From Bursaphelenchus xylophilus (taxonomy: Eukaryota; Nematoda; Chromadorea; Rhabditida; Aphelenchoididae), in the NCBI GenBank assembly GCA_904066235.2, contig CAJFCV020000002.1, positions 11,780,001 to 11,844,000 of the forward strand: a stretch of 64,000 bases of DNA, given 5' to 3'. The position numbers and the translations under genes were made by a program. Under the pieces are notes generated by a model. The model was not told the DNA's origin. It worked only from the letters and a program-made list of their open reading frames with translations, and made no database searches. Shown here in pieces: positions 1 to 22,582 of this stretch. Within the stretch, counting starts at the first letter, position 1; each line of letters starts with the position of its first letter.

Positions 1-432
1 GATTCCCAGACGTTCGCCAACTTTGAGGCCACAATTTCAACAACTCTCCACGGGATTTCCCTTCCTTCAGCGCTCTTCAACACTGTCGTCCGAACGCTTG
101 GCGCAAAATACAACCGTGAAAACGGAACGTACTCTGTGGACTGCGGGAAGTCGTTGAATTTGGTGTTGGAGATCAACGGAGCAAAGATCGAAGTGCCCTT
201 AGAAGCGTACACACTGAAGACCAAGGAGGGATGCACATTGCTGCTGAAGTCGCACGCAGAGAGCAAGCAGATCGTCCTCGGACAGGCGTACTTTATGGAA
301 CGCGGTGTTTGTTTGGACTACGACAACGACGAAATTCATTTTCATCATGACTACCCAGTCGGATACCCTATAAAAGAGGGCTTGACGCGGATCAACGGAG
401 GTTTTGCATATGTTACAAAGAGAGACATGTAA
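1..432 (+). CDS. Inactive pepsin-like protein A, C-lobe exon (5' end outside window)
   Basis: This is exon 2 of the aspartic-protease-like family, open from base 1 to the TAA at 430-432, with 143 residues visible. The pepsin C-lobe pattern is clear. The catalytic-loop position reads A-T-I-S-T-T-L-H-G-I where pepsins have A-I-V-D-T-G-T-S, so the second catalytic Asp and the following Gly are absent. The C-lobe cysteine pair is present (VDCGK and EGCTLLL), and the terminal strand GVCLDYDNDEIHFH corresponds to the last strands of pepsin. The N-lobe exon and intron lie upstream of the window. Placement in the family is sure from its paralogues; the biological role is unknown. Confidence 0.85.
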   Translation, partial: DSQTFANFEATISTTLHGISLPSALFNTVVRTLGAKYNRENGTYSVDCGKSLNLVLEINGAKIEVPLEAYTLKTKEGCTLLLKSHAESKQIVLGQAYFMERGVCLDYDNDEIHFHHDYPVGYPIKEGLTRINGGFAYVTKRDM

Positions 433-436
433 TTTA

Positions 437-592
437 TTGGTCTGTCGGGAAAAAAACGGCGGATCGTCGCGCCTCGGAATCGCCCATCATCGCTTTGCGA
501 CTGCAAGCCGCGGATTGGGATTTGGTGCGCGACAGCGGCGAGGCGAGACATTTTGATGCGACGGTTCGTCGTTATTTTTCCGACAGACTGAT
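437..592. mobile_element. MITE-1 copy
   Basis: The left end reads TTGGTCTGTCGGG and the right end CCGACAGACTGAT, so the ends are inverted repeats of the MITE-1 type. It has no coding capacity and lies right after the stop codon of gene A. Confidence 0.75.
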
Positions 593-596
593 AACA

Positions 597-1010
597 GGTG
601 CAGCAGCTCGAATTTTGATGAAACTTGGTACAAATTTAGATTAATTTTTTTATAAATACGGTTTCCAGCTTGCGTTTTGCAGGAACGACAGAGATTTTTA
701 GGGTTTTAACGTACAGTGGGGGACCTAATCCAGTGGCAAAAACGTACCATTTTGCGTTCGGGAAGCATAAAAAATGTGGCAAAATACCTCCCTCTCCAAG
801 TGAAAAAACTCAGATTTCAACTCTTTTTGTGATGAAATAGGGCGCGCCCTTCAAAACGAAGTTTTTTCACTTGGGGAGGGAAGCATTTTGCCACATTTTT
901 AATACTTCCCGGATGCAAAATGGAACGTTTTTTGCCACTGGATCAGGTCCGCCACTGTATTGCAAAGTTTAAACAAAATCTGAGCGTCGCACTTGGACGC
1001 CTTCCCTAGT
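597..1010. mobile_element. Family IV element split by a MITE-2 insertion
   Basis: Left piece about 597-711 (gatgaaacttggtacaaattt) and right piece about 960-1010 (tctgagcgtcgcacttgg) match the two ends of family IV. They are separated by MITE-2 at 714-957, which is flanked by TA on both sides. The nesting shows that MITE-2 moved after family IV was already here. Internal family IV sequence is missing. Confidence 0.6.
714..957. mobile_element. MITE-2 copy with TA target duplication
   Basis: It starts CAGTGGGGGACCTAATCC and ends GGATCAGGTCCGCCACTG, with TA at 712-713 and 958-959. The arms are long imperfect inverted repeats around an internal 'ttttttcacttgg' block. CAGTG ends with a TA target fit a non-autonomous Tc1/mariner-type element. 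Confidence 0.85.
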
Positions 1011-1053
1011 AAAAGTAGTGAGTGTCATAATGAAAGTTTCACCTTCAAATTCA

Positions 1054-2716
1054 TTAGTTAAATTCGAATTCTTCGTATTTTCTGGAGACAATACCTCCAT
1101 TAAAATTGAAGTTATTTTTACCAGAATAAACACGATCATCCTCGTTGAGTGTGGCGTCGTAGACGTGGACTTCGTTCTTCTCCTGATCGAAGCAAACGCC
1201 GTTGTTCACGTAGAACGGCAATCCCAAGACCAACGTTTTCTCGTTCGTCTTTCTAAGCTTCAAAAAACAGATTCTTCGGCCAAAAGCCTTCGTGTAGGCG
1301 TCAAAGCGCACTTCAATATTTGAATTTGCAATTTGCAATTTCAAAGGTAAATTTTTACCGCAGCTCACAACCCATTCGTTGAAACCGTTGTGGAAGTGGG
1401 CGTCCAGCGCTTTGACAATTTGGAAGAAGAGGCTTTCCGGTACAGTAATGCCATCAAAAGTTGATGTGAACGTGGCCAGAAATGTGGTTTTGACATTGTA
1501 GTTGCCAATAGAAACTGCGGAAACATTGATGTTGTAGTACTCGGGATGCGGGACCACTGGGACCCGTGCGTACAGAGATTTGGCTCCGAGATTCGGACTG
1601 AACGATCCTACTGTTACAGTGGTGATCTTTGATCTTAAAATTAACTTGAAATAAGTTTTCTCTCTGGAAATTTGATGACTAGATTAAAGATTTGATCCGA
1701 AGAGGGCATCTGGGCGAAGAGGGCATCTTTTCGGACTGGGAATTTTGAAAAAAAAATGGTAAGGGGGGACCAAGGCGAATTTTTTAACGATGACTTTTTC
1801 GTTTTGCAAAAAAAAAGATTGTAAGAGGGGACCAAAACGGATTTAAAAAATGAATATTGAATAAAAAATTTTAACGTTTTCTTCTGGGCGCAGAATTTTG
1901 TTCCAGATCCTCCTTGGTCCCCCCTTACCATAAAATTTTTTTGCAATCGAAAGAATCATTCCTAAAAAATCCGCCTTGGTCCCCCCTTACCATAAATTTT
2001 TTACAATCGAAAAAATTATTTTCAAAAAATCCGCCTTGGTCCTCCCTAACCATAAATTTTTTTTGCAATCTAAAAACTCATTCTTAAAAAATCCGCCTTG
2101 GTCCCCCCTTTACCATAATTTTTTTCTCGACGTTCACTCTTCGCCGAAATGCCCTCTTTGGATCCACCCTAGCCCGAGTTTACCTTTTGTTCTTGCTTAG
2201 CCCCACCTCCAAACAAAGTATTCTCGGATTCTTTCCGTAGATGGCGGGAACGACCGTCGACAGCTCAGAAACACGCTTCGAGAATCCCAGTCTCCCAGCA
2301 AAGGTTTCTTTGTCCACTCCGACAACGCTCACATTCCCAAAGATCTCATGCGCCACAATAAACCTTCCCTCCACCGGTCGAAGGCTGACATTCAGCCGGT
2401 CCTGGCCGACAAATCCGCTGGCCATCGAAAAGTCTTTGTTGAATTGTTCGAAATACACAGCCACTCCAATGTCCGAGAGGTTCTTGAAGCCCGACGAAGC
2501 AGTGGGATCAAACACATTCCCACGCCCAAATTCTCCCTCAAATTCGGCGGATTTGAGGATAAAACTTTCCGCAGATGTTATGTCCACCAAGAATTTGCGC
2601 GACGAGGAGTAGTTGTCGTTGAGGAATGCGTTGAGCTGGAAGTTGCTGACCACAGAGAGTGCGTCGCAGCGCGCTACTGCATAAAAGAGCAGGAAATTGT
2701 AGAAAAGTGGCAACAT
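1054..2716 (-). CDS. Inactive pepsin-like protein B
   Basis: Two exons on the minus strand, 2716-2184 and 1633-1054, join in phase 2 to about 370 residues. Exon 1 starts with a signal peptide (MLPLFYNFLLFYAVARC). The N-lobe active-site position is F-L-V-D-I-T-S-A (DTG lost, Asp kept) and the N-lobe signature AGRLGFSK is present. Exon 2 has T-F-T-S-T-F-D-G-I in place of the C-lobe DTGT loop. Family cysteines are present: ILCLEV at the N-lobe end, NNGVCFD near the C-terminus, and the C-lobe pair VVSCG and RICFL. The donor is AG|GTAAAC and the acceptor TTTTAAG. The 550-bp intron carries tandem repeats. It lies convergent to gene A. Confidence 0.85.
1739..2130. repeat. Imperfect tandem and inverted repeats in intron of gene B
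   Basis: Units of roughly 60 bp containing 'ccttggtccccccttacc' repeat at about 1911-2125 in one orientation. Two related units at about 1741-1860 are in the opposite orientation ('ggtaaggggggaccaagg'), so the array can fold back on itself. Confidence 0.8.
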
Positions 2717-3403
2717 TTTTCAGCAACAGTCGCCGAGAAAAAAACAGAAACGAAATAATATGTACAACTTCTTTTTATGTAAATAAAGAAGCTGTCAGTG
2801 AGACAAAAGGTGATTTTTTTGTTATCAATTAAATACACGACCCATTATCAGCAACTGGTTTTAAGCATATTATTTTTTCAATTTGTTGAGATCAGAAAAA
2901 CGCACATTCAACTGGAGAGGTTAGTTGTACCGTTCACAAAGTCGCTAGAGCGAGTCTTGCTACAGTGGGTCCAGTGGCAAAAACGTACCATTTTGTATTC
3001 GGGAAGTATCAGAAATGTGGCAAAATTCTTCCCTCTGTACAGGGTTTCCCCAAAAAAATGCATGTTTTTTCATGGGTCCTGACGCGAAAATTTTTAGGTC
3101 AGGCCAAAAGATTTTTGTACTACTGAAATCTCCGTGTTTTTCTGTTTTATGTTTATATCGATTAACTAACATGGTTTTTTTAAATGTCAAAAAAAATAAT
3201 GCGATTTTGTCACTATTTTTGAGCCGTTCAAGTTGTTAACGGTAAAATGACAGTGACGACGGAGGACTTTGGAAATGGAGTCCAAAATACATATGTATAT
3301 ATGTCGTAATTTTAAGAAATACATAGACGAGCATGCTTCAAAATTCTAGCTACAATGCTGCCTCAGCCTTTATTGCACTAAAAAAAATAAGAATACAACT
3401 GAA
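2717..3403. other. Intergenic gap between B and C with half a MITE-2
   Basis: A MITE-2 left arm lies at about 2962-3038 (cagtgggtccagtggc to ttcttccctc) with no right arm. The remainder is AT-rich and I see no supported gene in it. Confidence 0.6.
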
Positions 3404-3850
3404 TTACTGTCCGACGACAGTCTCAACGACAGCGGTAGCTCCATTATGAGTCTTGACGATTCCATTGATCATTACTTGAGCGTTAAAAGCAGCATCGTAG
3501 AGATGGATTTCCTCATCCTCATTATCAAAACAAGCACCGTTGTTGACTAAGAACGGAACTCCCAAGATGATGGCCTTTCTTTCCTTTCCACGTCTGATGT
3601 TGACAACGCAATCGGGTCCATCGGTCGGCTCGATAAACGCGTCAAATCGGATGTCAAATTCCGTGCCATTGATCTCGATCTTGATGGGAATTTCTTTCGC
3701 ACAATCCACAACATATCGATGCTTTACTGCGTCGAATTTTGCGCCCAGTCTCCGGACGAGGTTTGGGTAAAACGTTGGAGGGACTGTGATTCCGTTCAAT
3801 GTTGATGAAAAAGTGGCCACAAAGTTTGCTCAGGTTTTCAGGCTGTCAAT
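3404..3850 (-). pseudogene. Inactive pepsin-like fragment C (C-lobe only, broken)
   Basis: The C-lobe exon is preserved from about 3850 down to the stop at 3404. It reads A-T-F-S-S-T-L-N-G-I at the active-site loop, then VVDCAKE, DCVVNI and NNGACFDNED. The frame continues upstream through an in-frame TGA at 3829-3831 and then ends against unrelated sequence. The GD..YD start of the C-lobe and any N-lobe exon are absent, although a retroelement gag remnant begins about 700 bp further on. I infer a truncated family member. It cannot encode a secreted two-lobe protein as it stands. Confidence 0.75.
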
Positions 3851-4542
3851 GCTAATGCAGGTATCTCACCGCCTTCCACGTACCCGAGCGGCGTATCCTT
3901 TTACTAGACAATACTCAAATATCCATACCGGTTAACAATTACATTTATTATTACAAACACAACCGGCCATCTTCATCGCTTTTCCCTCTCTCCTCGATCT
4001 TCGATCGAGGCGCTAGGACTTGGGTTTAGACATGCGCGGTAACTCCGCTTCCGACTTACGTCATCAGCGTCGCTGGCCGCGACATCTTCCCCCTCCTCCT
4101 ATCGCGACGACCGCGTCGCGAGAATTGACGGCAAGGTCTGAATGAGGCTTCAAACTTCAGATCTCAATAACACATACAAAAATGAATATGATAAAGTGTA
4201 ATAATGTAAAATTAAAGCTTACTACGGTTATTACTGCCTTTTTTGAATTGCTATCGAATTGCAAACGTTTATCCCTTTAGACAAGACTATGAAAGAAAGG
4301 TAAGGAAGAAAAGTGTATATTTCTTGGTTTTTCAGGTATTATATTAATTCACGACGAGCTCAGCGAACGGATGAAGCTGCTCCGCGTTCTAAGCTTTATG
4401 ATAGTGTAATATATATATATATATATATATTTGTTGTGATAACCAAGATTGCAAGAAAGAAAGACTAGAGTTTAGAGGAATGGGAGTCCACGTAGCTCTT
4501 CTGACAGTTTTCTCATAGGACGAAAGTTAATACAGTACAAAA
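3851..4542. other. Non-coding sequence beside gag remnant, with TA microsatellite
   Basis: No open frame is convincing here. A (TA)n tract lies at about 4409-4431. The stretch 3866-4140 may be a retroelement end, but I found no matching direct repeat on the other side, so an LTR is not proven. Confidence 0.4.
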
Positions 4543-5324
4543 TTATCTATACAATACATGCTGCGACCTTTTTCGGCCACTTTCGCTTGGAGAGGCATCG
4601 ATGACGTGATTGACGGTGGGACTCGAGAAGCTGCACAAATTGCGCTGATCTTGAAAGTATGGTCGGTTCTCGCGTTGCGGATTGAACGTGTTTCGGCGCG
4701 GGTATTGCTGAGTTGGATTGGGACGCTGGTTATTTGAAAAAGTCCTGTTGTGCGCTTGCGGTCGCTCGCGGTCGTTGGGATGATTTTCCCGAAAATTGTT
4801 GTAACGCGGGTTGAAGTTCCGCGGTCCGGCGAAAGGGGCTCTTTTCCCTCGGCGATTGTGAAACGGGTTGAGGCGAGCGAGCTGCCTTTGTATATTGAAA
4901 AGGGCCTCGCGAACGAAACTGTCGGGCCCCTGCACCGCATTCACGCCATACGCCTGTATCGTCCGACCTCATTTTCCGCTATCCTTATCAATTCACCTAA
5001 CTCCGTAGCCCATCTCTTCTCAAAGAAATCCCTGCGCGCTTTTTCTTGCTTCCCAGCTATTGGGATTGCGCTAGCAATCGCATTTAAAATTTCCTCTGGC
5101 TCCTCGGCCCTGATTAGCTCCCTATCCAAATTTTTATACACCATCATGGCTTCATCAGCCAGATAGTGCGGAATCAGTTCGGCCGCCTTCTTGCGGCCGA
5201 GCTTCCTCGCATCGCACATACGAGCGTATTGCCTCAAAAACGTGGCAAACGGCCTCGGGTCGTGTCGACCGCAGAAGGGGGCCAACGGGTAGGAGGGCGC
5301 GTTAGGCTCTTTCGTTGGGGCCAT
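4543..5324 (-). pseudogene. Retrotransposon gag-like remnant, frameshifted
   Basis: Two overlapping minus-strand frames together look like a retroelement gag. The first (5324-4941) starts MAPTKEP and shows a capsid-like pattern: FCGRHDPRPFATFL, a helical middle, then FFEKRWATELGELIRIAENE. It stops in a TGA. Translation resumes in another frame (to 4543) with a long Arg/Asn/Gln/Pro-rich tail typical of gag C-termini. No zinc knuckle, protease, reverse transcriptase or integrase frame follows, so the element is dead and mostly deleted. An LTR-class (Ty3-like) origin is an inference from the gag alone. Confidence 0.6.
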
Positions 5325-6304: not shown

Positions 6305-7620
6305 TCCTCACAAGGGAATGGTTTGAACTGTCCGTGAGCTTTCAACATGAGACCTCCAAATTCTGAAAGAGCGTACAAAATTTAGTAGGAATCCGCTTTC
6401 CATTTTTGCCGAATGGTCTTGGGAGACGAGAAATATCGACAGAAAGATCCGACAAAAAATCGAGAGAGAGAGAAAAGACGAACCGAAAGGCCCAGAGAAG
6501 CGTCACCAAATAGTATAGTGGAAAAAGTTCCACGCACGAAACTTTTGGCAGAGGGAGGCCTTGGAGGTTCGAGTCCACCCGGAGCGGATATCGTCGGCTT
6601 GGATCTACGTGTCGTAAGTGTATTCGAAAGCTATGTAAAGATTCTTTTTTCATTTATTCGAGTGTTTTAAAATTCTTGTTGCAAAATTATGCTTTTTCTA
6701 TCGACCGAATGGCCTTGGGAGAAGAGTTCCAGCCGTTTTTTATCGACCAGGTTACAACATGCTTACGTTACAGTAATCTGTGAAAGTTAACTTTCAAAAA
6801 ATTGAGTACGCAATGGCCATAAAGATACATACGCAAAATTTTGGCTCATTATCCCTTTCTATGATGCCGTCAGACACAAAATTCCAAAAAAGACAAATTT
6901 ATGAAAATTTATACCTTCTAGGAAGAATTTGGGAAAAATATTTTGGGCGTTTGTTAAACACATGTCCACGGTCATTTTAAACTAAAAAACTCAAAATCGA
7001 TTTTTTTCGTAAATATGCCTTGTTGGACCACACGCTGACGCAATGACCCAAAAAATTTCTTTTGAACTTTTCTTGCAAAGCTTTAAGGAAAGGAGAAAAT
7101 TTGGCAAGATTTTCCCTGGAAACTCGAAAAATTCCGCAAGACCCATACAACCTTTCAGAACCGAGTATAAATGTCTTGCAAACACCAGTATGTCGACATC
7201 TGGCATCATCGAAAATGCAGCCAAGTTGTCAAGTCTTCTTGAAATTTCGAAAAAAATCTGTAAAACACTCGAATAAATGAAAAAAGAATCTTTACATAGC
7301 TGTCGAATACACTTTCGACACGTAGATCCAAGCCGACGATATCCGCTCCGGGTGGACTCGAACCTCCAAGGCCGCCCTCTGCCAAAAGTATTGTGCGTGG
7401 AACTTTTTCCACTACACTATTTGGTTACGCTTCTCTGAGCCTTTCCGGTTCGTCTTTTCTCTCTCGATTTTTTTGTCGGATCTTTCTGTCGATATTTCTC
7501 GTCTCCCAAGACCATTCGGCAAAAATAGAAAACGGATTCCTACTAAATTTTGTACGCTCTTTCAGAATTTGGAGGTCTCATGTTGAAAGCTCACGGACAG
7601 TTCAAACCATTCCCTTGTCA
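6305..7620. mobile_element. Inverted pair of tRNA-derived repeats (arms about 365 bp)
   Basis: Left arm about 6305-6670 and right arm about 7262-7620 are reverse complements with few differences, separated by about 590 bp. Each arm holds a tRNA-like promoter pair. The left arm has an A-box TAGTATAGTGG at 6511-6521 and a B-box GGTTCGAGTCC at 6566-6576; the right arm has the same pair reversed at 7409-7419 and 7353-7363. The A-box has the form typical of eukaryotic tRNA-Asp. There is no intact cloverleaf, so this is a SINE-like or tRNA-derived repeat rather than a tRNA gene. The spacer 6671-7261 has no supported coding. Confidence 0.6.
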
Positions 7621-7980
7621 GAGCGCGCGTCCGCACCCTGGGCCTACAATAAGCTCGATATGATATAACACGGGCTTTGGCTGGCTTTACCCCTCCGCTT
7701 GGATAACGCGCGCCAAAAGCTCCCGCGACATAAGCGTCAAAAATCATGAACCGAGTCAAATAAATGAAATTCAAAAGTAAATGCAAGTCTGATGACCTAA
7801 TCCCTGCAAAAGGTTGCAAAACTCATATTACGGGGATAAAATTTGTTTTCTCTCTTATCATCAACTCATAATCTGTTTTTGATTACTTCTAGAAGACTTA
7901 AAAGCCTATTAACCACTCCATCTTAGCTGTTGCAACATCAACCGATTGCACAATTTATTAATCTCCAAGATAAGCATAAG
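7621..7980. other. Intergenic gap before gene D
   Basis: I see no gene or recognisable repeat. This is the 3' flank of gene D. Confidence 0.4.
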
Positions 7981-9368
7981 TTACTCAAAAAATTCTGTGG
8001 TGATGAATTGTCTTGCACCGTTAGCAGTCTGAACCACACCGTTTATCGCAACGCTGTCCTCATCGTACGTAGAGTCATAAAGATGGATTTCTCCCGACTC
8101 ATAATCCAATCCAATCCCGTTGTTGATGAAGAAAGGCAGGCCGAGGACCACTTTATCAGCGGAGGCGACGCTCCGCAACTTCAACACGCACACTTTGTCC
8201 AACTGAGCGATTATGGCATCAAATCGGATGGTAATTTTAACGCCATTGATCTCCAATATGATCGGGATATTTCTGTTGCAATCTACCGTGTAATGACGAT
8301 TTTCACGGCTGTATTTTGCGCCCAATGTTCGGATGGCTTGTTGGAACACGGCGAATGGAAGGGTAATCCCATCAAGTGTTGTGGTAATGACGGCTTTGTA
8401 GTTGCGAATGTTGACAACATTGCCTATGGTGATCCTTGCAACACTCAGGCCCCAGAGGCCGTTCGGGTGTGGCAGGGAACGGACTTTGGTGCGCAGACGT
8501 TTCGGGTCATAATTGAAGTCTCCCAAGCCGATGGACGTTCTTACCGCGCTGAAAATTGAACATTTTTAAGCTAGCTGCGGATTTGAGGACGTATCAGTTT
8601 GCCGTAAGCTTTTTCCAACGACTTCGGAAAAGGCAAAAAAGTCAATGCACTTTATGAAAATATCAGTCTGTCGGGAAAATAATGAGCGATGTGTCGTTTC
8701 TCCGATCACGTCGCTGAAGTGAAAAGCAATTTGATTTTGTCCCGATACCATTGATTTTCTCGGTGACGATACGACTTTCGATGCGACAGAGTGCTCACTA
8801 CTTCCCCGGGACTGATATCTACTTCAGAGCGCCCAAGCAAACCTTACCTGCTATTGGGGCTGACTCCCACCTCCAACGACAATTTCCGAGCGCGCGGGAA
8901 TTGATTCTCCGCCAACGACCCGTTCGCAATGTTCCGTGAGAACCCGATCCTCCCGGCATTGGGATATCCGTCGGTCCCGAACACAATCTCTTCCGCTGTG
9001 ATCTTTTGAGCCACGCCGAATCTGGCGACCTCGTTGTGGAGGATGATGGTCACATTATCTTTGCCAAGGAAGCCAAGAACCGTGGAATCTTTCCCATTGT
9101 ATTCTCCAGTGTAGTTCACTTGGAAGGGCTGACTTATGTTCTCGAAAGTGTCGGAAGCCGACGGTTTGAAGACGTTGTCACGGCCGTACTTGTCCTGGAA
9201 CTCGGTGGATCGGAGGACGAAGATCTCGGAGGAAGTGAGGTCCAAGATCAACGACCGGTCAATGTCGGTGTTGTCTTGGAACTTGGCCGTAAGGCGAAAG
9301 TTAACGTTGTATCCTTGGCATACGACAGCCAGAGAGAGTGGAAGAAGATAGAAGCTGACAAAACCCAT
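7981..9368 (-). CDS. Inactive pepsin-like protein D (lacks the family's interlobe cysteines)
   Basis: Exons 9368-8848 and 8548-7981 join in phase 2 to about 362 residues. The signal peptide MGFVSFYLLPLSLAVVCQG leads into the N-lobe, with L-I-L-D-L-T-S-S at the first active site and AGRIGFSR. The C-lobe reads A-V-I-T-T-T-L-D-G-I at the second site. The C-lobe cysteine pair (TVDCNRN, KVCVLKL) is kept. The N-lobe end reads RKLSLEVGV where paralogues have LCL, and the C-terminal strand reads NNGIGLDYE where paralogues have GxCLD, so both members of the other conserved pair are missing. A TATATAAG motif lies near 9402-9409 upstream of the ATG. The 299-bp intron contains a MITE-1. Confidence 0.88.
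8661..8818. mobile_element. MITE-1 copy in intron of gene D
   Basis: It starts TATCAGTCTGTCGGGAAAAT and ends with a degenerate CCGGGACTGATA. It lies wholly inside the intron. Confidence 0.8.
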
Positions 9369-10201: not shown

Positions 10202-12002
10202 ATGCTGCTGAAAACCGCTATTCTTTGTTGTTTTTATTTCGTGCAAGCTTCCGGCTGCCTTGACTTTAAACTACCCGTATTCTTCGGCGATTCTGGCCGC
10301 CTCCGACGCGACTTGCTCATTGACTTGACCACGGACGAAAACTTTGTTCTGGACGCCAAGACTTTCAAGCAACGGTATGGCGACAGAAGGGTCTATGATC
10401 CCAAAGCTTCAGCTACGTTTAAGAACCGCACCAAGAGGTTCTATGACTTCTACCCGGTGTGGTTTATTCAAAACTACTCTTCAGTTCATGGCTATGTCGG
10501 CGAAGATATTGTCAGGATTCTATCGCATCCAGTGAAGGCAAAGTTCGGCGTTGTGACTAGTGTGGAGGGCGAGGGAAGCATCGAAACTTGTGATGGCCGA
10601 GGCGTCGCCGGTCGACTTGGGCTTTCCCGAGGCAATGGAACGACCAATTTGGGATCCGTATTTATGAGAGATCGGTCACAGGCGGTTCTGTGTCTGTCGG
10701 CAATTTCAGAGTAAGTCGGGTGAAGATTTTTCTTACATACTACAGATATCTGTATAGAATCCACGTCTGGGCATTTTCTGGGACTATGATTTGTCCTATG
10801 CTGTTTTTGTTATCACACTGTTTCTGTCTCCATTCGATGAGTATCGGCAGTCTGCCGGGAAAATAACGAGCGGAATGCCACTTCGCCTAACGCGTCGCTG
10901 AAGTGAAAAGCAGTTTGATTTTGCCGCGACACAATTCATTTTTCCGGCGGCGATACTTGACTCATTTAACGAGACACCAGCGTCGCTGAGACAAAAACCC
11001 CCGACGCCAAAAAATAGTTTATATCATCAGTCTGTCGGGAAAATAACGGCGGATCGTCGCGCCTCGGAATCGTCCATCATCGCTTTGCAACGGCAGCAGC
11101 AGCTGGAGATTTGGTTTGATTTTTTTTCCATAACTGTCTGAAAAAATCTAATGATCAGAAACGCGGCATAACGAAATAGTTTTTGGGCTTTTATCAGTCT
11201 GTCGGGAAAATAACGGCGCCTTGAAGTCATCGCTTTGCGACGGCGACCGCAACTGGAGATTTGGTGCGCGATAGCGGCGAGACAAGACATTTTGCTGCGA
11301 CACCTAGCCGTTATTTTCCCGACAGTCCGATTCAATACAAATCCAGCACCATCAAAAAAATGGCACGTGATGACTTCACACATGAAAAATAGATTCTGTA
11401 ATCATCTCTGGACGTTGCGGCACGCTTTTCTTACTCAATGACTAATCTCTTATCATTTTAGAAGAGCAATGATTTATATTGGGGACTTTATCTACGACAA
11501 ACACGACTTTCTCGCCAAAGTCCCAGTGGTCCCTGATCTTGACGTTCTCTGGAAGGTCAAGTTGGAAAAGTTGGAGTTCATAATTGGAGGCGCACGAACA
11601 TATGCATATCTGGAAGCCATCCTCTCCACAACTCTTCCGGGAATCTCACTACCATCGCCCGTATTTAGCGCTACAATTCGGGCTCTCGACGCGAAATATG
11701 ACCACAACAGCGGGAATTATTTTGTGGATTGTGGCAAGGAGTTCTCGCTCTCCTTCGAAGTCCAAAACGACAAGATTATTGAGGTCAAGTTGGAGGATTT
11801 TACGAAAAAAGTCGGAGATCAATGTATATTGTTGTTGAAGAGCCATTACGCAAGCAAATTCGTCGTGCTGGGACAAGTCTATTTCAAGGATCGTGGGTAT
11901 TGCTTGGATTTTAACAAGAATGAGATCCATTTTTATAACCATAAAGAACATTCTGGTGGACTACGGAAAAAAGATTATGGAAAAAGTTTGTTGATAAAAT
12001 AA
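10202..12002 (+). CDS. Inactive pepsin-like protein E
   Basis: Exons 10202-10710 and 11462-12002 join in phase 2 to 349 residues. I chose the ATG at 10202 because it starts the signal peptide MLLKTAILCCFYFVQASGC at the same place as gene F. N-lobe: L-L-I-D-L-T-T-D at the first active site, then GYVGED and AGRLGLSRG. C-lobe: starts MIYIGDFIYD, has A-I-L-S-T-T-L-P-G-I at the second site, then VDCGKEF, DQCILLL and RGYCLDF. The N-lobe end LCLSAIS supplies the partner cysteine. The 751-bp intron is filled by MITE-1 pieces. It is the closest paralogue of gene F, with the same exon 1 length. Confidence 0.9.
10845..11330. mobile_element. Cluster of MITE-1 pieces in intron of gene E
   Basis: Left-end pieces start at about 10845 (CAGTCTGCCGGGAAAAT) and 11027 (CAGTCTGTCGGGAAAAT). 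A complete copy runs from about 11193 to 11330, ending CCCGACAGTCCGAT. These insertions are absent from the shorter gene F intron. Confidence 0.75.
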
Positions 12003-12695: not shown

Positions 12696-14043
12696 ATGCT
12701 GCTAAAAGCCTCTATTCTTTGTTGTTTTTTCTTCGTGCTAGCTTCTGGCTGCGTTGATTTCAAACTACCCGTATTCTTCGCCGATTCTGGAGGACTCCAA
12801 CGAGACTTGCTCATTGACATAGCCACTACCGAAAACTTTGTCCTGAACGCCAGGACTTTCAAGCAAAAGTATGGCGACAGAAGGGTCTATGATCCCAAAG
12901 CTTCAAAGACTTTTAAGACCAGCGACAGACGTTTTTATGGTGTCTTCCCTGTGTGGATTACTCAAAATTATTCAACAGTTTATGGCTATATCGGCGAAGA
13001 TATTGTCAGGATTCTGTCGCATCCAGTAGAAGCCAGCTTCGGCGTTGTGACTGTTGTGAAGGGTGAGGACAGCGTCAAAACTTGTGATGGCCAAGGCGCC
13101 GCCGGTCGACTTGGACTCTCAAGAGGCCGTGGAACGACCAATTTGGGATCAGTGTTTATTAAAGATCGGCAACGGGCGATCCTGTGTTTGTCGGCAATTT
13201 CAGGGTAAGTCGGGTTACGAGTTCTTACGTAGAATTCTATACTGGTTCTTTTCTATTTCGGGTTGCCGTACCCTGTATCTATCAGTCTGTCGGAAAAATA
13301 TTGAGCATTCTGTCGTATCGAAAATTGCATCGCCGCCGAGAAAATTAATTTTGTCGCGGCAAAATCAAATTGCTTTTCACTTCAGCCACGCGATCGGAGT
13401 AGCGATATCGTGCTCACTATTTTCCCGACAGACAGCTAATTTACCTTTTATTACCTCTTGAACGTTGCGGCCCGCTATTCTTACCCAATGACTAATCTTT
13501 GACTGTTTTAGAAAAGCAATGATTTATATTGGCGACTTTATCTACGACAAACAAGACCTTCTCGTCAAAGTCCCAGTGTATCCCGATTTTGACGTCCTCT
13601 GGAAAGTCCAGTTGAGAAGTCTTATAGTTGGAGAAAAAACATACGCATCTCCCCTAGCGATTCTCTCCACAACACTTCCGGGGATCTCATTACCAGAGCC
13701 TATGTTTGGCGCAGCAATTCAGGCTCTCGGCGCGGAATACGACAACAACACTAGGAATTATTTTGTGGACTGTGGCAAGAATTTCTCGCTCTTCTTCGAA
13801 GTCCAACAGGGCACGATTATTGAGGTCAAATTGGAAGAGTTTACGAAAAAACTGGAAGATCAATGTATATTGTTGTTGGAGAACCATTACATAATAAGCT
13901 TCGTGGTGCTAGGACAAGCCTATTTCGAGGATCGCGGGTATTGCTTGGATTTTGATAAGAAAGAAGTCCATTTTTATAACCATACAGAACATTCTGGCGG
14001 ACTATGGAAAAAATATAATGGAAAAAATTTGTTCATAAACTAA
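12696..14043 (+). CDS. Inactive pepsin-like protein F
   Basis: Exons 12696-13204 and 13512-14043 join in phase 2 to 346 residues. The signal peptide is MLLKASILCCFFFVLASGC. The first active-site loop reads L-L-I-D-I-A-T-T and the second A-I-L-S-T-T-L-P-G-I. Cysteine pattern: LCLSAIS, VDCGKNF, DQCILLL and RGYCLDF, plus one extra Cys before the AGRLGLSRG motif shared with E (KTCDGQG). Exon 1 is the same length as in gene E and much of the sequence is identical, so the two are recent tandem duplicates. The intron holds one MITE-1 (13280-13435). Confidence 0.9.
13280..13435. mobile_element. MITE-1 copy in intron of gene F
   Basis: The ends are ATCAGTCTGTCGGAAAAAT and TTTTCCCGACAGAC. Confidence 0.75.
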
Positions 14044-14152
14044 ATATAAGAGATTTTCGGTCGCAATGAATTTAACTCCCTTATCAAAGAAATGTTGGCA
14101 ACGGAGAGCCAGACAGTGCTCTTGACATCCTTTTTGCTGTAAAAAACTTCAC

Positions 14153-14455: not shown

Positions 14456-14740
14456 CCCCAGATTTTGATGAAACTTAGCACAAATTCAGAACAATTTTTT
14501 CAAAGATGCATACGACAATCCTAGCTCGCGCTTTGCAGAAGCAACCGAGATTTTTAGGTTGCAAGTCGGCGAAAAGTTGACACTTTCGGCACGAAAAGTT
14601 TCATACGTATTCCAACCGTAACGGGTAATGTTTCCACAAAAAAATAACTTTTTCGTACGAAACCAACAAAGTTATGGCCAAAAAGTTTTTTCTCTTTGAC
14701 TGCTCTCCGCGCTTAGCGTACTCTCTCTGCGGAATCAACC
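14456..14740. mobile_element. Family IV fragment
   Basis: It contains 'gatgaaacttagcacaaat', 'agctcgcgctttgcagaag', 'gggtaatgtttccaca' and 'ctctccgcgcttagcg', which occur in the same order in the complete copies at 52388 and 61990. The outer ends are missing. Confidence 0.7.
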
Positions 14741-14867
14741 CATCTTGTCTCAAAAACAAGTTTTTGAATTTTTGGTGATTCTCAAAAACAACTTTGCAAA
14801 GTTGCTAGCCGTTTATTTGACTTTAAAACAAATCCAGATTAACCAAATTTTTTGAATACGCTTGGCT

Positions 14868-15964
14868 TTACCATATTCTTTTATTGGCGGAAAGGGCGTT
14901 CAGATCGTCCTCGTCGCGCGCTGTTGCATCAAAGAAGTGAACTTCGTTGGCGTCATAGTCCAAACAAACTCCATTGGAAAAGAAGAATGGAGCTCCAAGT
15001 GCGATGCTCTCCTCAGTCTTCCTTAACTTCAACAGACAGCGATTTTCGCCTAGATTTTTTGTGTAGGCATCGTATCTTATTGGAATGGTAGCGTTGTTCA
15101 CTCCGACGTTAATTGGAATATCTTGACTGCAGGCAGCAACAAATCCTCCAACGGATTCATCGAAATGACCGTCGGTGGCCATAATTACTTTGTCGAAGAG
15201 TCCCGTGGGTAAAGAAATTGCATCGAGAGTGGTGGAAAGAGTGGCTTCAGGGACCTCGGTGATATGGAACTTGCCAACATCGATGCGATTGACATTGAAT
15301 GTCCAGAGTCCTCCGGGATTGGGAGGAGACGGAGCAATTGTTCGTAAAAGGCTTGGGCGGTAGGCAGGACCACCCATGGTGATGACAGGGAAAGTTCCTC
15401 TGAAAGAACAGATTACATATTAAAATGGCGAATGTAAACTTACTCATCCAACAGCAAAACCGCCACGTACAAACACAAAATTCGTTGAAGGCGATCTTCC
15501 CGAGCAAACATAGCATCTCTAATTGCTGCCCCAGGCGCTCTGGAGAACCCAATTCTTCCAGCGTTCGGAAGGGTGTCAAAGACGCTTGGGTCATCATTTC
15601 CAGTGATTCTCTGCGCAACGCCAAAGCTCACATTTACCACACTGCCCAAGGCATATAATTCATCTTGGAAAATGAAGCCAGAAACTTCAGAAGCCCCCGG
15701 ATTATACTCCTCTGAATATTGGTATCTGAATTCTTGCGTAGTGTTGAGCTTAGTGGTAGAGTTGTTCAGATTAAAAGCGTTGTTCTTTCCGTGCGACGAG
15801 AACTTGTCGTAGTCGAGGACAAAAGAATGGGTCGAGGTCAGGTCGACAATCATCTTTCGGAACGTCATATTCTCATCCGAAAAAATGGTGCCGATCCGGA
15901 AATAGTCCACAAACGCATTGCATGTTGAGAGACATAGCAAGAGCACAAGGAACCTCATGATCAA
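14868..15964 (-). CDS. Inactive pepsin-like protein G
   Basis: Exons 15964-15444 and 15399-14868 join in phase 2 to about 350 residues. The intron is only 44 bp, with no transposon, and shows the ancestral gene structure. The signal peptide MIMRFLVLLLCLSTCNA is followed by M-I-V-D-L-T-S-T at the first active site and AGRIGFSR. The second site reads A-T-L-S-T-T-L-D-A-I. Cysteines: ILCLYV, FVAACSQ, NRCLLKL and SNGVCLDYD. The N-lobe has several N-x-S/T sites. A TATAAAA box lies 26-32 bp before the ATG. It lies convergent to gene F. Confidence 0.9.
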
Positions 15965-15989
15965 CTATCAATTTTTTTGTTTCCCTGCC

Positions 15990-15996
15990 TTTTATA
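15990..15996 (-). promoter_or_regulatory. TATA box of gene G
   Basis: TATAAAA on the minus strand, ending 26 bp before the ATG, which implies a leader of only a few bases. Confidence 0.55.
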
Positions 15997-16019
15997 CGGC
16001 GATAAATATGGTGAAAAAA

Positions 16020-17113: not shown

Positions 17114-18412
17114 ATGGGATCATTTCTGAATTTAATAATTCTCTCTATCTTAGCATGCAGCTGCCATGGTAAACTCCTCAGCTTTTTGATGAACGCTAAG
17201 CTGAGCGATGCCTACGATGGATACCGCCGATTTTTGGTTGACATCTCCACCGGCGACAGCTTTGTCTTGGATGCTAGTGTCTTCAACGAAACTTATAGAG
17301 AATGGAATACCTTTGATCCTGCGACGTCCAGTTCTTTCCAGAATTTAACTGCTGAGTTTTCGCAAACTTATGTTGGTGATTTGAATGTCAACTCATCTTC
17401 GGTTGCCGGATATCTAGCCTATGATTCACTTGAGGTAATTGGAACCGAAATGAATGCAACGTTTGGAATTGTCAAAAGAATTGATGGAAATTCCCCACCA
17501 ACAGTGACGTATCTAGGAGAACAAGTTGCAGGACGGATCGGATTTTCCAGGCTGGGAAATACCACCACAAATATTCATAAGCGTCTGCTAGAGGGACATG
17601 AGAACAAAGCGCTTTGCTTGGCTATGTACGACGAGGGGGAGTAAGTGTCTTAAATAATGTGAGCTCTCATCTATCTATAAAAACCTCTAGTTTTTATGAT
17701 CAAAAAACAAAAAAAAATCAGTCTGTCGGAAAAATAATGAGCACAATGTCACATCGAAAATTGCATCGCCGCCGAAAAAATGAATTGTGCCGCCCGAAAG
17801 TCGAGTTGATTTTCTTCAGCGACGCGATCGGCACAGCGACATTCCGCTCATTGTTTTCCCCACAGACTGAGAACTTTACAACCAAGAGTGTGTTTCAGAA
17901 TCACGAAACCTCAAGTCAGTCTCGGCCGCTTCTCAGGTCCTCAGAAGGCGCTGCGAACCACGGTCAAAGCCCTTCCGAGAGCCGACGGACTTTGGGCGGT
18001 CAACGTGACCAGTGTTAAAATGGATAAATACAGGATCAGCCGCTCCCATGAGATTGTCTTCAGCACGACATTTGACGGCATCGGCTTCAAGTCCGACCAT
18101 TTCAAACGACTTCTTTGGCTGCTGGACGCTGAATACGACCGTCCAAATGGCCGATTTTATACAAGCTGCGGTCAAAACTTGACGATTGAGTTTCTAATCA
18201 ACGAAGCGGCGATTCCGCTCAAATTCAGCGACTACACGGAGAAGATCGCGGAGGACAAATGTGTCATCAAAGTGAGGCATTTGTATGAAGCTACAATTAT
18301 ACTGGGTGCTCCAATCTACCGAAAAAATGGAGTGTGTTTTGACTTTGAGAAGGACGAAGTCAGCTTCTACGACATGCAAGACGATCCTGATTCAGATGTC
18401 GGAATTGTCTAG
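17114..18412 (+). CDS. Inactive pepsin-like protein H
   Basis: Exons 17114-17640 and 17899-18412 join in phase 2 to 346 residues. The signal peptide is MGSFLNLIILSILACSCHG. The first active-site loop is F-L-V-D-I-S-T-G and the N-lobe signature AGRIGFSR. The C-lobe loop is I-V-F-S-T-T-F-D-G-I-G-F-K, the least pepsin-like of the set after the loop. Cysteines: ALCLAM, YTSCGQN, DKCVIKV and NGVCFDF. Several N-linked glycosylation motifs (N-E-T, N-L-T, N-S-S, N-A-T) occur in the N-lobe. The 258-bp intron is mostly one MITE-1. Confidence 0.9.
17718..17871. mobile_element. MITE-1 copy in intron of gene H
   Basis: The ends are ATCAGTCTGTCGGAAAAAT and TTTTCCCCACAGACTGA. Confidence 0.8.
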
Positions 18413-18595
18413 AAACAGTGTTCTGATTTGGAAAATAAAAGCTTGGTGTAAATTTTTACAAATCAATTTCGCCCTTCAAATAATGCTATTTTCCTCTGTA
18501 GTCTTCAGCTTTGATTACTTTTCGTGAGATAGCAAAGATTTCTCTAGCTTTCTCGTCGATTTCCGGTCCCAGTCCTTTTCCGAGGGCGATATTGG

Positions 18596-18853
18596 TTGGG
18601 TTCGAAAATTTTTTATTTTCTCCGGCTTCTCGCTAGTGTGCCTTGTGAGTTGAAAAGGTGCACCTATTGCCTTTTCCGTTCGCTTTCCGATCACATTAAA
18701 GATATGCGCTTCGAAAACCACACCCATCTCAAAACCGAGTTGGCCAACTTTTTCCGATCAAAACCCGCCGAGTTCTGCGAGCACGGAATAATGGTGTTGC
18801 ATGAGCGTTGGCAGTATGTCGCTGAACATGACGGTGCATACTATCCCTATTGA
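18596..18853 (+). pseudogene. Mariner transposase C-terminal remnant
   Basis: The frame ends in a pattern typical of mariner transposases: C-L-F-R-S-L-S-D-H, then RFEN, LANFFRSKPAEFCEHGI and HERWQYVAEHDG, then a stop at 18851-18853. In intact mariners this follows the last catalytic Asp block (SDYHLFRSL-like). Here the D-Y is replaced and nothing of the DDD catalytic core or the DNA-binding domain lies upstream. Only about the last 70 residues remain, so the copy cannot be active. It sits between genes H and I. Confidence 0.75.
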
Positions 18854-18973
18854 TTGTCGCTTACCTTTAGGAAAAAATAAAGTTTTGTTAGAAAAAATCT
18901 GGAAAAACTTTTGAATCAACCATATATATATATTTATTTATATTAGAGGTCAAAAATAAGGTTTACATGAAAC

Positions 18974-19574
18974 TCATTTAGGCAAGAAAAGTGCAAATGT
19001 CAGCAAACAGGTTATCAAGAAACTGCTGCTTGCAATCTTCATGCCGCTGTTCGTGTGAGGAACCTCGTAAAAATGAATTTCATCGGACTCGTAGTTCAGA
19101 CAAATGCCGTTGTTGGTAAAGAACGGCGCTCCAAGCAATAGTCGATTCCATTGACTTACATCAAGCTTTAGCCGACATTTTGTTTCAGTTAGCTTATCTG
19201 TATAAGCTCCAAACTCAATTACAATTTCGGACTTCCCGATCGCTAATTTTATGTCGATATTCAGCGCACAGTCCACAACCCACTCCCGAAGGTCTTGGTC
19301 GTATTTTGGCTTGAGTTTTTTAAGGAGGTGCTCGTACGGGCCACCAGGAAGTCCAATGACATCAACGGTCGTTGCAAGTATAGCACCATAACTGTCGTTG
19401 AAATTAACTCCGTCAATTGACACGCCGTCCACCGGCGCGATCCATAGACCCTCGAACGGAAATTCTGGCTTGATTGCAGGAACTTTGGTTTTGAAGCTGG
19501 TTTTGTTGTAGATGTAGTCGCCGATGCGGACGGTTGTTGAGTTATGCCTAAAATTATTTAATATATATAATAAT

Positions 19575-19634
<60 letters not shown>

Positions 19635-20234
19635 TATAAAGGTCCATAAAGTGCGTGGAGTTTTCAATTCGACCGCCGCAATGTAAGCTGTTTTTCAACG
19701 GCTGCTTCATACTTACGTCTTATTTGCAGTTGCCTCCAAACATACCACAGGCAAATGACTGTCGCGGAGGATGGTATCTCGAACGCTGGTCTTTGGATCT
19801 TTCGTATTTGATAATCCAATTCGTCCAGCAAAGGTTTGGTTCAGAAAGCTCAGGTTCGGCTCACTATTGTCGTAACGCTGAACCACGCCGAAAGTGGTTT
19901 GAAATTCTTTTCCCAAACCCGAAATTCGGTCTTCTCCAAGATATCCGTGAACCATCGACATCGTTTTTGGAAACATATCAATGTAAGCATTAACAAAATA
20001 GGTGGTTTTGTTTTTAAACGTGCTGGAAGCTGCGGGGTTGAAGACATTTTGAGGTCCAAATTTGTTTAGGAATTCAGCAGATTCCAGAACGAATGTTTCA
20101 GGCGTAGACAAGTCAACCAGCATTCTTCGAGGGAGAGTTGCATTGTCGGGAAAAATGAGATCAACACTGAAAGTGCCTGCAAAACCATTACAAGCATGGA
20201 GCGAGAGAAGAATACAGATGCTTTGAAAGAGCAT
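18974..20234 (-). CDS. Inactive pepsin-like protein I with hydrophobic C-terminal tail
   Basis: Exons 20234-19717 and 19547-18974 join in phase 2 to about 363 residues. The signal peptide is MLFQSICILLSLHACNG. The first active-site loop reads M-L-V-D-L-S-T-P and the signature AGRIGLSN. The second loop reads A-I-L-A-T-T-V-D-V-I. Cysteines: VVCLEA, VVDCALN, TKCRLKL and NGICLNYE. Unlike its paralogues it ends with a small-residue stretch followed by a hydrophobic run (FLITCLLTFALFLPK), which could be a GPI-attachment signal or a membrane tail. The 169-bp intron holds a long AT repeat. It lies convergent to gene H. Confidence 0.88.
19557..19640. repeat. (AT)n microsatellite in intron of gene I
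   Basis: About 84 bp of almost pure AT dinucleotides directly downstream of the splice acceptor region. Confidence 0.95.
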
Positions 20235-20568
20235 AGCGAATTTGATTTGCCATTAAATTTGTTACTGATATTTGTATTTGTAGCGGTAAATTAGTGAGTC
20301 ATCCATTCTCCGAACACCGTGTTTTTGCGCTCGAAAAAACTGTTTTGCTAAAACACTGGTTCAATATAAAAAGGTTCTAACCTTTTTCTGTTACAGTAAA
20401 GAATTTAACGATTCATGGTTTTTTTGTCGATGATTCTTCTTTTTCTGATAACCAATACTGCAAAAAGTGACTAACATCTCTAAGGCTACTATTCATAGTC
20501 ATCACCATGCTTGCTTCCACGGCCCACAAAAAAATTGATAGCTGACATACAAAGTTAAGAAAGCCGAT

Positions 20569-20713
20569 ATCAGTCTGTCGGGAAAATAATTAACACATTT
20601 TCGCTGGGTCGATCCCGTCACTGAAGTGAAAAGCAATTCAATTTTGTGCCGACACGATTCATTTTATCGGCGACGATGCGGTCTGTGCCCATTATTTTCC
20701 CGACAGGTTGATA
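20569..20713. mobile_element. MITE-1 copy upstream of gene J
   Basis: The ends are TATCAGTCTGTCGGGAAAAT and TTTTCCCGACAGGTTGATA. Confidence 0.85.
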
Positions 20714-20907
20714 AAGAAAAGTTTCTGCAGTGATTTCTGCTACATTGCGAAAAAAACAAAAGTGCAATTTCCCCTCTGCAATTTTTCCACCGTGCAATGG
20801 CTCCTTTTGGGGTGTCGTTTGTATCCTGATTTTTTTGCAGGGTTAGCCAAAAGGCGTTTTTTCCATGACCGTTGTCCGCGCTCCGCCTACTGCCTCGATC
20901 GCAAAAC

Positions 20908-20914
20908 TATATAA
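20908..20914 (+). promoter_or_regulatory. TATA box of gene J
   Basis: TATATAA (cgcaaaactatataagttg) ends 34 bp before the ATG at 20949. Confidence 0.5.
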
Positions 20915-20948
20915 GTTGTTAAAGAGGAAGATGACAATATAAACGTCT

Positions 20949-22582
20949 ATGATGATTTTTATTCTAGCAATTGCCTTGCTCTTGCCGACCAGTCAAGGAT
21001 ACGTCAACGACTTTTCCCTTCCCGCCAACTTCAACGACGATCCCGGCCTGGAAAGACGTCTTCTCCTGGACATCAACACTGGCGAAACTTTTGTTCTCAA
21101 CGCTAAAGAATTTCTTGGTCAATATGGGCCTGAACAAGTCTTTGATCCAGCAAAATCCAAGAGCTTCACCAACCTGACGGAACCGTTTCGCCAAGCGTAT
21201 TCCCCCTTGCTCAACTCGAACATCTCAGTTGTTGGTGGGTATGTTGGAAGGGACAAGTTCCAGCTATTTCTTCGGCAGCTGGACGAAAAACTTGCCGTAG
21301 TTACGACGTTCACTGGTGCAGCGCCTACGGAAAGTTTTACAAGTCCGCCGTACGCTGGAAGAGTGGGGTTCTCGAAGGCGAAGGATCCAAAAACAAATAT
21401 TCGAGATGCACTGTTGGCCAACCTTACCGCAAGATTACTCTGTCTGCATGTTGGTGTCAACGCGGATGAAAGGTAAGTTCACAGCGGAGTTGGACGATTT
21501 GGGAAAAAGACGATTGGGGAAATCAAAAAGTATTATTTTTCTTCGATGCAAATGTCGAAATTAGGATAACCGAGCGTGCTGATTTCGAAAACGGCATTCA
21601 TTTTTTTGATTGTTACTTTTTTCCTTAAGTAGTACTGTAAAGTAGTACTTTTTTTAATTTTTTTCACAAATACTCGATTTAGGGGTTTTCGATGGTGCTG
21701 ATTTCGAAAATCGTGTTAACTTTTCCTCTAGTACTATATAGTACTATCCCATACTATGTAGTACGAGTTGAAAATATGGCTTTTGACGTTAATGGTGTTG
21801 TTTTGATGCTTAGCACTCTTCAAAAACACGTTTTAAAGACTTGGTGATATTTAATACTTCCTGATACTGTATAGTACGAGGTTGAAATTTGGTTGTTCTG
21901 GTGCCTAATACTGCTATTTGTTAGAGAAGGGAGGTATTTTGCAACAATTTGGTTCCTTCCTGGATGCAAAATGGGACGTTTTTTGCCACTGGATCAGGTC
22001 CCTCACTGTAAAACACTTTTCAGCATAAAAACGACTCTGATTTCCATTGGCAGCCACTCGTATAACGAGAAAAACTTCCGAACAAAGATCAACGCTTCGA
22101 CCAGCGTGTATTGGAGATTTGATGTGCCCGCAGTCCTCTTCGACGGCAATAAATATAGCGCTGACTTTGATGCCATTCTCACCACAACGAAAGATGTGAT
22201 CGTCGTCCAGAACACGCTTTATTCTCGACTCCTCCGCAAACTTGGCGCCAAGCTTGATCCAAAACGCAAGCAATACGTCGTGGAATGCGGACAGAATTAC
22301 GACATCAAGCTGTTAATTGGAGGAGCCGAGATTCCCATTCAATTCGGCGCTTATACCGAGAGGACTCAGGGGAATGAGTGCCGTCTGAAGGTCGAAGGCA
22401 GCTTACGCAACCAGCTGATTCTGGGAGCGCCCTTCTTTACAAACAACGGGATTTGTTTGGACTACGATAATAACTCAATTGATTTCTATGACTCGACCTT
22501 GCACGATGAGCTTGAGTTGGTCAGCGGAATCAGCGAAAATAATGGGACGTTCAAGTCGGTTGTGGTTGAAAACCTGAAGTGA
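20949..22582 (+). CDS. Inactive pepsin-like protein J
   Basis: Exons 20949-21472 and 22024-22582 join in phase 2 to about 360 residues. The signal peptide is MMIFILAIALLLPTSQG. The first active-site loop reads L-L-L-D-I-N-T-G and the signature AGRVGFSK. The second loop reads A-I-L-T-T-T-K-D-V-I. Cysteines: LLCLHV, VVECGQN, NECRLKV and NNGICLDYD. It shares the N-lobe end (KDPKT) and GAPFFTNNGIC with gene I, so I and J are close relatives. The 551-bp intron contains family III sequence and half a MITE-2 that ends 15 bp before the splice acceptor. Confidence 0.9.
21488..21890. mobile_element. Family III sequence in intron of gene J
   Basis: It contains 'cgattggggaaatcaaaaag', 'cttcgatgcaaatgtcg', 'gtgctgatttcgaaaa' twice and 'tagtactgtaaagtagtac'. 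These are all shared with the elements at 39667, 40857 and 42290. Confidence 0.75.
21921..22008. mobile_element. MITE-2 right arm in intron of gene J
   Basis: It runs from 'agaagggaggtattttgc' to 'ggatcaggtccctcactg'. The left arm is absent. Exon 2's acceptor follows at once. Confidence 0.75.

What the first reader, a model, noticed from the sequence alone, without database searches (positions are those of the whole stretch)
1..22582. Ten-copy cluster of secreted, catalytically dead pepsin-like proteins
Ten tandem and mixed-strand copies share the pepsin bilobal pattern, signal peptides in all eight complete genes, and length (346-370). Every copy with a visible C-lobe has [STA]-[TS]-T where the catalytic DTG should be (9 S/T, 1 A among ten), and all eight N-lobes read D-x-[TSNA] instead of DTG. 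Loss is universal yet frames, signal peptides and cysteines are kept, so the proteins are selected for something other than proteolysis. Known precedents for inactive pepsin homologues are the ruminant pregnancy-associated glycoproteins and cockroach Bla g 2. A large nematode cluster with a uniform replaced motif would be new to me. Binding of a ligand, host factor or protease inhibitor is inference.
Basis: partly seen in the sequence, partly recalled or inferred. Interest (0 to 1): 0.88.

Follow-up and report, generated by a model that had tools for sequence, protein, structure and literature searches.

The report
Secreted non-cutting pepsin-like protein family
A nematode genome carries a large family of secreted proteins that look like the stomach enzyme pepsin but have lost part of its cutting centre, so they probably bind other molecules instead of digesting them; dead pepsin relatives are known elsewhere, so this is a new variant of a known kind.

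Summary
Window 1-22582 has ten copies of a pepsin-like (Pfam Asp) gene: eight complete two-exon genes (346-370 aa, hydrophobic signal-like N-termini, one phase-2 intron) and two C-lobe fragments (copies 1, 3). All ten C-lobes lack the catalytic Asp (S6, T3, A1). The family is genome-wide: 32 modelled genes, one clade against four intact paralogues. N-lobe Asp is kept in 31 of 31 that cover it; the C-lobe position is S23 T4 D2 A1 M1 H1; both active-site glycines are gone in 32 of 32. A Cys pair, one per lobe and absent from four intact paralogues, is present in 30 and lost as a pair in one (window copy 4): probably an inter-lobe disulfide. No propeptide is seen. pN<pS in all 496 pairs. The genome fits Bursaphelenchus xylophilus, whose 2011 genome paper counts 73 aspartic peptidases, 39 with all catalytic residues; so dead ones were in print as a number. 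The Asp/Ser centre matches plant xylanase inhibitor (TAXI-I), EDGP and basic 7S globulin. Best reading: secreted, non-proteolytic binding proteins; ligand unknown.

The parts
1..432 (+). copy 1, C-lobe exon (its open frame starts upstream of the window); no N-lobe found upstream
   Evidence: C-lobe HMM E 2.3e-52; N-lobe HMM best E 1.2 over 11775000-11781854 of the contig; motif STT
1054..2716 (-). copy 2, exons 2716-2184 and 1633-1054, 370 aa; acceptor choice uncertain; motifs DIT / TST
3404..3829 (-). copy 3, C-lobe remnant, no N-lobe hit, in-frame TGA in its match; motif SST
7981..9368 (-). copy 4, exons 9368-8848 and 8548-7981, 362 aa; motifs DLT / TTT; lacks both Cys of the proposed inter-lobe pair
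10202..12002 (+). copy 5, exons 10202-10710 and 11462-12002, 349 aa; motifs DLT / STT
12696..14043 (+). copy 6, exons 12696-13204 and 13512-14043, 346 aa; 73% identical to copy 5; motifs DIA / STT
14868..15958 (-). copy 7, exons 15958-15444 and 15399-14868, 348 aa, 44-nt intron; motifs DLT / STT; its two lobes were folded separately
17114..18412 (+). copy 8, exons 17114-17640 and 17899-18412, 346 aa; motifs DIS / STT
18974..20234 (-). copy 9, exons 20234-19717 and 19547-18974, 363 aa; motifs DLS / ATT; hydrophobic C-terminus
20949..22582 (+). copy 10, exons 20949-21472 and 22024-22582, 360 aa; motifs DIN / TTT

Best explanation
A family of secreted pepsin-fold proteins derived from an A1-type aspartic protease, most of which no longer cut peptides. 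Each complete gene codes for a signal-like N-terminus followed almost at once by the mature fold, without a visible propeptide, and for two lobes in two exons. The N-lobe Asp (D32 equivalent) stays, the C-lobe Asp (D215 equivalent) is Ser or Thr in most members, and both glycines of the active-site loops are gone. The lobes are probably tied by an extra disulfide between the end of the N-lobe and the last C-lobe strand. The scaffold probably serves to bind, block or display rather than cleave, with partners that differ between paralogues. Shown here: fold class, missing residues, genome-wide family, constraint. Inferred: no proteolysis, secretion, the disulfide, binding as function.
Against: No assay, transcript, peptide or ortholog was seen. 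Three genes keep both Asps (DTT/DTA, DSF/DTA, DTI/DTT), so not all members need be dead; two further C-lobe-only hits also have D. dN/dS of 0.53 is only moderate constraint; other pairs are near synonymous saturation. Two of ten window copies are fragments, and one of the 32 has a split C-lobe frame. The N-lobe model is weak (pLDDT 66). The lobes could not be folded together, so the disulfide is not tested in space. Only four intact paralogues were in the tree, so monophyly against all aspartic genes of the genome is untested.
Confidence: 0.72

Rival explanations
1. Plant-TAXI/EDGP-like use: the proteins inhibit or bind cell-wall glycoside hydrolases (of plant, fungus or the worm itself) with loops on a dead pepsin scaffold. 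A narrower form of the best explanation.
For: Same motif pattern: xylanase inhibitor LDVAGP / LSTRLP, basic 7S globulin VDLNGN / ISTSTP, EDGP VDLGGR / ISTINP (PMC11313796 table, passage) against VDLTST / LSTTLD here. The genome encodes 11 GH45 genes by my exon count.
Against: By sequence the family is nearest Candida, chymosin, rhizopuspepsin and gastricsin types; no plant inhibitor is among the 60 rows shown of 80. An Asp-to-Ser step may recur without shared function; gamma-conglutin shares the fold but lacks the GH11 and GH12 inhibition (PMC7583008 abstract start).
Confidence: 0.15
2. Peptide binder or decoy, as proposed for PAGs and Bla g 2: the cleft still holds peptides or host protease inhibitors without cutting and so soaks them up. 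Also a narrower form of the best explanation.
For: Flap Tyr kept (Y29 F2 A1 of 32) and the C-lobe Thr216 equivalent kept as T27/S5; peptide-binding roles have been postulated for inactive pepsin homologues (PMC3116508 passage).
Against: Both loop glycines are gone in 32 of 32 and the flap carries about five extra residues against Sapp2, so a pepsin-like grip on peptides is not assured. No ligand is known.
Confidence: 0.25
3. Decaying duplicates without function, caught midway.
For: Copies 1 and 3 are fragments; C5:11961742- has a split C-lobe frame; in B. xylophilus frameshift variants are over-represented in aspartic-type endopeptidases in two strains (PMC4619224 passages).
Against: Divergence is deep (median 25% identity), yet 32 genes keep splice sites, Cys pairs and the N-lobe Asp with few exceptions; pN<pS in 496 of 496 pairs.
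Confidence: 0.06
4. Some members still cleave by a changed centre: those that keep both Asps, or the gene with His in place of the C-lobe Asp (a mirror image of plasmodial HAP, where the N-lobe Asp is His).
For: Two of 32 keep Asp (DTA); C4:3730642+ keeps DTT while its 61%-identical sister C4:3726854- has His.
Against: The glycines are lost in these too; PMC11313796 argues that activity needs the C-domain Asp (passage); none of these genes lies in the window.
Confidence: 0.05

Closest known systems
Plant xylanase inhibitor (1T6G, TAXI-I by recall), EDGP, basic 7S globulin
   Same: Pepsin fold; N-lobe Asp kept with the next residue Leu or Val; C-lobe Asp to Ser in an [IL]-S-T context (PMC11313796 passages)
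   Different: Not among the 60 of 80 PDB rows shown for this profile; the plant proteins' many disulfides (recalled) are not seen here; here at least 33 two-lobe genes in one nematode
Ruminant pregnancy-associated glycoproteins (PAGs)
   Same: Large family of secreted glycosylated pepsin homologues, some thought inactive (PMC6221303 passages; PMC2682831 listing only)
   Different: In the passages most BuPAG isoforms keep both protease motifs (BuPAG 8, 9 and 15 keep only one) and BuPAG 7 keeps Asp32 and Asp215; here 30 of 32 lack the C-lobe Asp and 32 of 32 both glycines
Bla g 2 (cockroach)
   Different: Its own active-site changes and gene number are recalled, not compared here
Intact aspartic proteases of the same genome (C4:3311k, 3313k, 3318k; C2:801k)
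   Same: Same Pfam family; an intron within about a codon of the same place
   Different: DTG plus D[ST]G; intron phase 0 by the donors listed, not 2; other cysteines; 13-23% identity to the family
Aspartic proteinases without a propart in Phytophthora, fungi and marine bacteria
   Same: Signal peptide followed directly by the mature enzyme region in Phytophthora PxAP8/9 (PMC3116508 passage)
   Different: That paper treats most of them as likely active, so a missing propeptide alone does not show inactivity

Membership tests
Pfam Asp / MEROPS A1 homologue (fold level) | Significant match to the A1 profile and pepsin fold | tested here: met
Catalytic A1 peptidase | D-[ST]-G in both lobes | tested here: not met
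   0 of 32 genes has the glycine in either lobe; C-lobe Asp absent in 30 of 32 (S23 T4 A1 M1 H1), present in 2
Catalytic A1 peptidase | Propeptide between signal peptide and mature enzyme | tested here: not met
   In the eight window genes the N-lobe Asp is residue 39-45 from the start Met, counted on the sequences, leaving no room for signal plus propeptide; an unseen upstream exon is not excluded, and proparts are also missing in some other aspartic proteinases
PAG | Both catalytic Asps kept (as in most isoforms of the passages read) | tested here: not met
   C-lobe Asp absent in 8 of 8 window genes; comparison
PAG | Trophoblast expression in even-toed mammals | not testable with these tools
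   genome with nematode traits (with PMC3164644)
Plant TAXI/EDGP type | N-lobe Asp kept, C-lobe Asp to Ser | tested here: met
   D/S in 22 of 32, D/T in 4 more
Plant TAXI/EDGP type | Sequence membership of the plant group | tested here: inconclusive
   not among 60 shown of 80 PDB matches; absent from the 50 VIA rows of each lobe
Plant TAXI/EDGP type | Inhibits glycoside hydrolases | not testable with these tools
   no assay
Bla g 2 type | Its own active-site changes and metal site (recalled) | not tested
   C-lobe fold similarity only

The most novel reading that the evidence does not exclude
A nematode has independently built a repertoire of at least 33 secreted, disulfide-locked dead pepsins with the Asp/Ser centre of plant TAXI/EDGP-type inhibitors, and uses them as diversified binders or decoys at the interface with plant, fungus or gut contents: convergent evolution of a pepsin-fold inhibitor family in a worm. 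The family would have lost the active-site glycines first and the C-lobe Asp later, since a subclade still keeps the Asp without the glycine.
Probability: 0.2. Interest if true: 0.75.

Novelty: new variant of a known kind. Interest (0 to 1): 0.5.

Why it matters
Surveys of this worm's secretome count aspartic peptidases (31 in one, PMC3689755 passage) and discuss them as digestive enzymes (PMC8144518 passage). If a large share cannot cut, those counts mislead. A series of genes in one genome with Asp, His, Met, Ala, Thr or Ser at the same place would also let the loss of catalysis, and the gain of another use, be followed step by step.

Tried and rejected
Shifted alignment: rejected; intact paralogues and solved enzymes put DTG/DSG in the same columns.

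Frame or splicing artefact: rejected for the eight window genes; all splice at one phase-2 site. The first genome-wide script looked at phase-2 donors only, so 'all phase 2' was built in; one search allowed any phase and still ranked a phase-2 donor first in 32 of 32 (tied in the two C5 genes whose donors I re-picked by hand).

Retropepsin-like homodimer of N-lobes: considered; the N-lobe Gly is lost in 32 of 32 and a C-lobe is present, so not pursued.

Horizontal transfer from plants: not supported; nearest solved sequences are Candida, chymosin, rhizopuspepsin and gastricsin types; plant inhibitors are absent from the 60 of 80 rows shown and from the 50 VIA rows of each lobe, which excludes nothing. 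The secretome paper reads its A1A tree as showing horizontal transfer as a main driver of that family (PMC3689755 passage); I did not test this for these genes.

Shared intron with intact paralogues as proof of descent: not claimed; nearby position but phase 0 against phase 2.

Literature: searches. Judged by the titles and abstract starts listed, none is about a dead aspartic-protease family in nematodes; lists were capped (10 of 13, 10 of 24 and 15 of 82 papers), and only open-licence papers are held. A paper on B. xylophilus aspartic peptidases (Cardoso 2019, cited in PMC8144518) was not seen. Supplementary files could not be read, so whether window genes were found in secretomes is unknown.

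Cys165 neighbours: the intact paralogues' residue at that column was T in the first alignment and W in the second; no Cys in either.

misread minus-strand loci and is superseded. Rows not counted in the 32: window copies 1 and 3; C1:10987469+ (an N-lobe piece alone); C4:3729223/3730642+ (DTI / DTT); C4:8848963- (C-lobe Ala by eye); C2:3999719+ (S); C4:12608841- (S); C4:8235964- (S); C6:8829049+ (D); C1:1324003- (D); C2:11239875- (N). Genome searches give lower bounds.

Full report
What is there. The first 22.6 kb of the window hold ten copies of one gene type. Eight are complete: exon 1 codes for a signal-like N-terminus and the N-lobe, exon 2 for the C-lobe, with one intron of 44-751 nt at a shared phase-2 site and consensus ends. 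Protein lengths are 346-370 aa. Copy 1 has no N-lobe within 4.85 kb upstream; copy 3 is a C-lobe remnant with an in-frame stop in its match. Gene models rest on consensus splice sites; no transcripts were available.

Fold. Pfam Asp (PF00026) matches all eight spliced proteins, and no other family does at E 0.01. A profile of the eight finds 53 distinct solved sequences at E 0.001, all named as aspartic proteases or their zymogens: Candida Sapp2 1.1e-10, chymosin 4.9e-10, pepsin 2.8e-5. The C-lobe of copy 7, modelled from ten window sequences, has pLDDT 80 and matches chymosin, gastricsin, plasmepsins and also Bla g 2. The N-lobe model is weaker (pLDDT 66) but its listed matches are likewise pepsin-family enzymes, such as renin, BACE1 and plasmepsins.

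Active site. The eight N-lobes read D-[IL]-[TSAN] and the C-lobes [STA]-[TS]-T. Alignment to solved enzymes and to intact paralogues of the same genome places these on D32-T-G and D215-T-G (pepsin numbering recalled). So the first Asp is kept and the second lost.

The family across the genome. Single-protein searches of the genome and HMMs made from the window exons give 32 genes with both lobes, eight of them in the window, on six contigs. A phase-2 donor scores first in 32 of 32 when any phase is allowed, tied in two. A 33rd gene, C4:3729223-3731205, has a split N-lobe. Among the 32 the N-lobe Asp is present in 31, the exception being a truncated N-lobe model; the C-lobe position is S23, T4, D2, A1, M1, H1; neither glycine survives in any. 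Eight intact DTG/DSG C-lobes in the same scan serve as controls. The N-lobe Asp is among the seven most conserved of 306 well-filled columns, while the C-lobe position ranks 36th.

Cysteines. The C-lobe pair of the intact paralogues (266/297 in copy 9 numbering) is kept in 30 genes and lost as a pair in one. A second pair, 165 at the end of the N-lobe and 322 in the last C-lobe strand, is present in 30 and lost as a pair in one gene, window copy 4; in each case the remaining gene is the same incomplete model. Four intact paralogues have no Cys at 165 or 322. I infer a disulfide between the lobes; that these strands are neighbours in pepsin is recalled, and the lobes could not be folded together.

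Evolution. In a maximum-likelihood tree the 32 form one side of a branch (100/100) against four intact paralogues; the eight window genes group with C2:11168158- and C3:9692605+ (95/99). The two genes that keep the C-lobe Asp group with the Met and His genes (99/98). The 33rd gene, 61% identical to the His gene in its C-lobe, keeps Asp as DTT. So loss of glycine seems to come before loss of Asp, with the Asp lost or regained at least twice (one search counts two changes); the root is weakly placed. pN is below pS in 496 of 496 pairs, though most pairs are near saturation; the one recent pair, copies 5 and 6, gives dN/dS 0.53 (0.38-0.74). This is real but moderate constraint.

Organism. The assembly has 78,253,340 bases; 17 GH45 exons count to 11 genes. 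The B. xylophilus genome paper gives 11 GH45 genes and says GH45 is limited to Bursaphelenchus and Aphelenchoides among nematodes (PMC3164644, passages). I take it as B. xylophilus; no name was given. That paper's Table 5 lists 73 aspartic peptidases, 39 with all catalytic residues (C. elegans 24 and 20). The gap of 34 is close to the 30 genes here without the C-lobe Asp, though gene identity was not checked. The 2013 secretome paper reports 31 secreted aspartic peptidases; the word 'inactive' occurs 0 times in it (PMC3689755, passages).

Comparison. PMC11313796 (passages) lists xylanase inhibitor LDVAGP/LSTRLP, basic 7S globulin VDLNGN/ISTSTP and EDGP VDLGGR/ISTINP, inactive through the C-domain change. 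The nematode family shows the same D/S swap in 22 of 32 but by sequence is not seen near them, so I read it as convergence. PAGs in the passages read mostly keep both motifs (PMC6221303). A missing propart alone is not unique (PMC3116508). Works-like and membership are kept apart in the table.

Mechanism. Shown: pepsin fold class, hydrophobic signal-like starts, missing catalytic residues, constraint. Inferred: no proteolysis, an inter-lobe disulfide, and a binding role. I cannot name the ligand. The plant parallel points to glycoside hydrolases, the PAG/Bla g 2 parallel to peptides; neither is tested.

Noticed in passing
window, 27 sites from 438 to 48654: A 19-base repeat, CAGTCTGTCGGGAAAATAA, occurs 27 times with up to 3 mismatches (0.03 expected); 20 of the 27 fall into ten inverted pairs spanning 135-242 bases, in introns and between genes; 22 of 27 lie in the first 21 kb. 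It looks like a small non-autonomous transposon concentrated in the cluster.
   Followed up: partly
window 6307-7621: Nested inverted repeats (arms of 153 nt at 98% and 204 nt at 92%) between copy 3 and copy 4, on the side where copy 3's N-lobe would be expected.
   Followed up: no
window 4527-5324: Minus-strand frames that look retroelement-like by eye; no Pfam match for the three frames scanned.
   Followed up: partly
G000 C4:3726854- and C4:3730642+: Sister genes 61% identical in the C-lobe, one with His and one with Asp at the C-lobe catalytic position: a mirror of plasmodial HAP, which has His in the N-lobe.
   Followed up: partly
window 18974-19100: Copy 9 ends in a hydrophobic stretch that could be an anchor signal, unlike the other copies by eye.
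   Followed up: no
window 36195-38150: Hsp70 gene in one open frame (Pfam E 1.7e-257), with an antisense open frame of 226 aa.
   Followed up: no
window 49080-50316: Minus-strand protein kinase exons.
   Followed up: no
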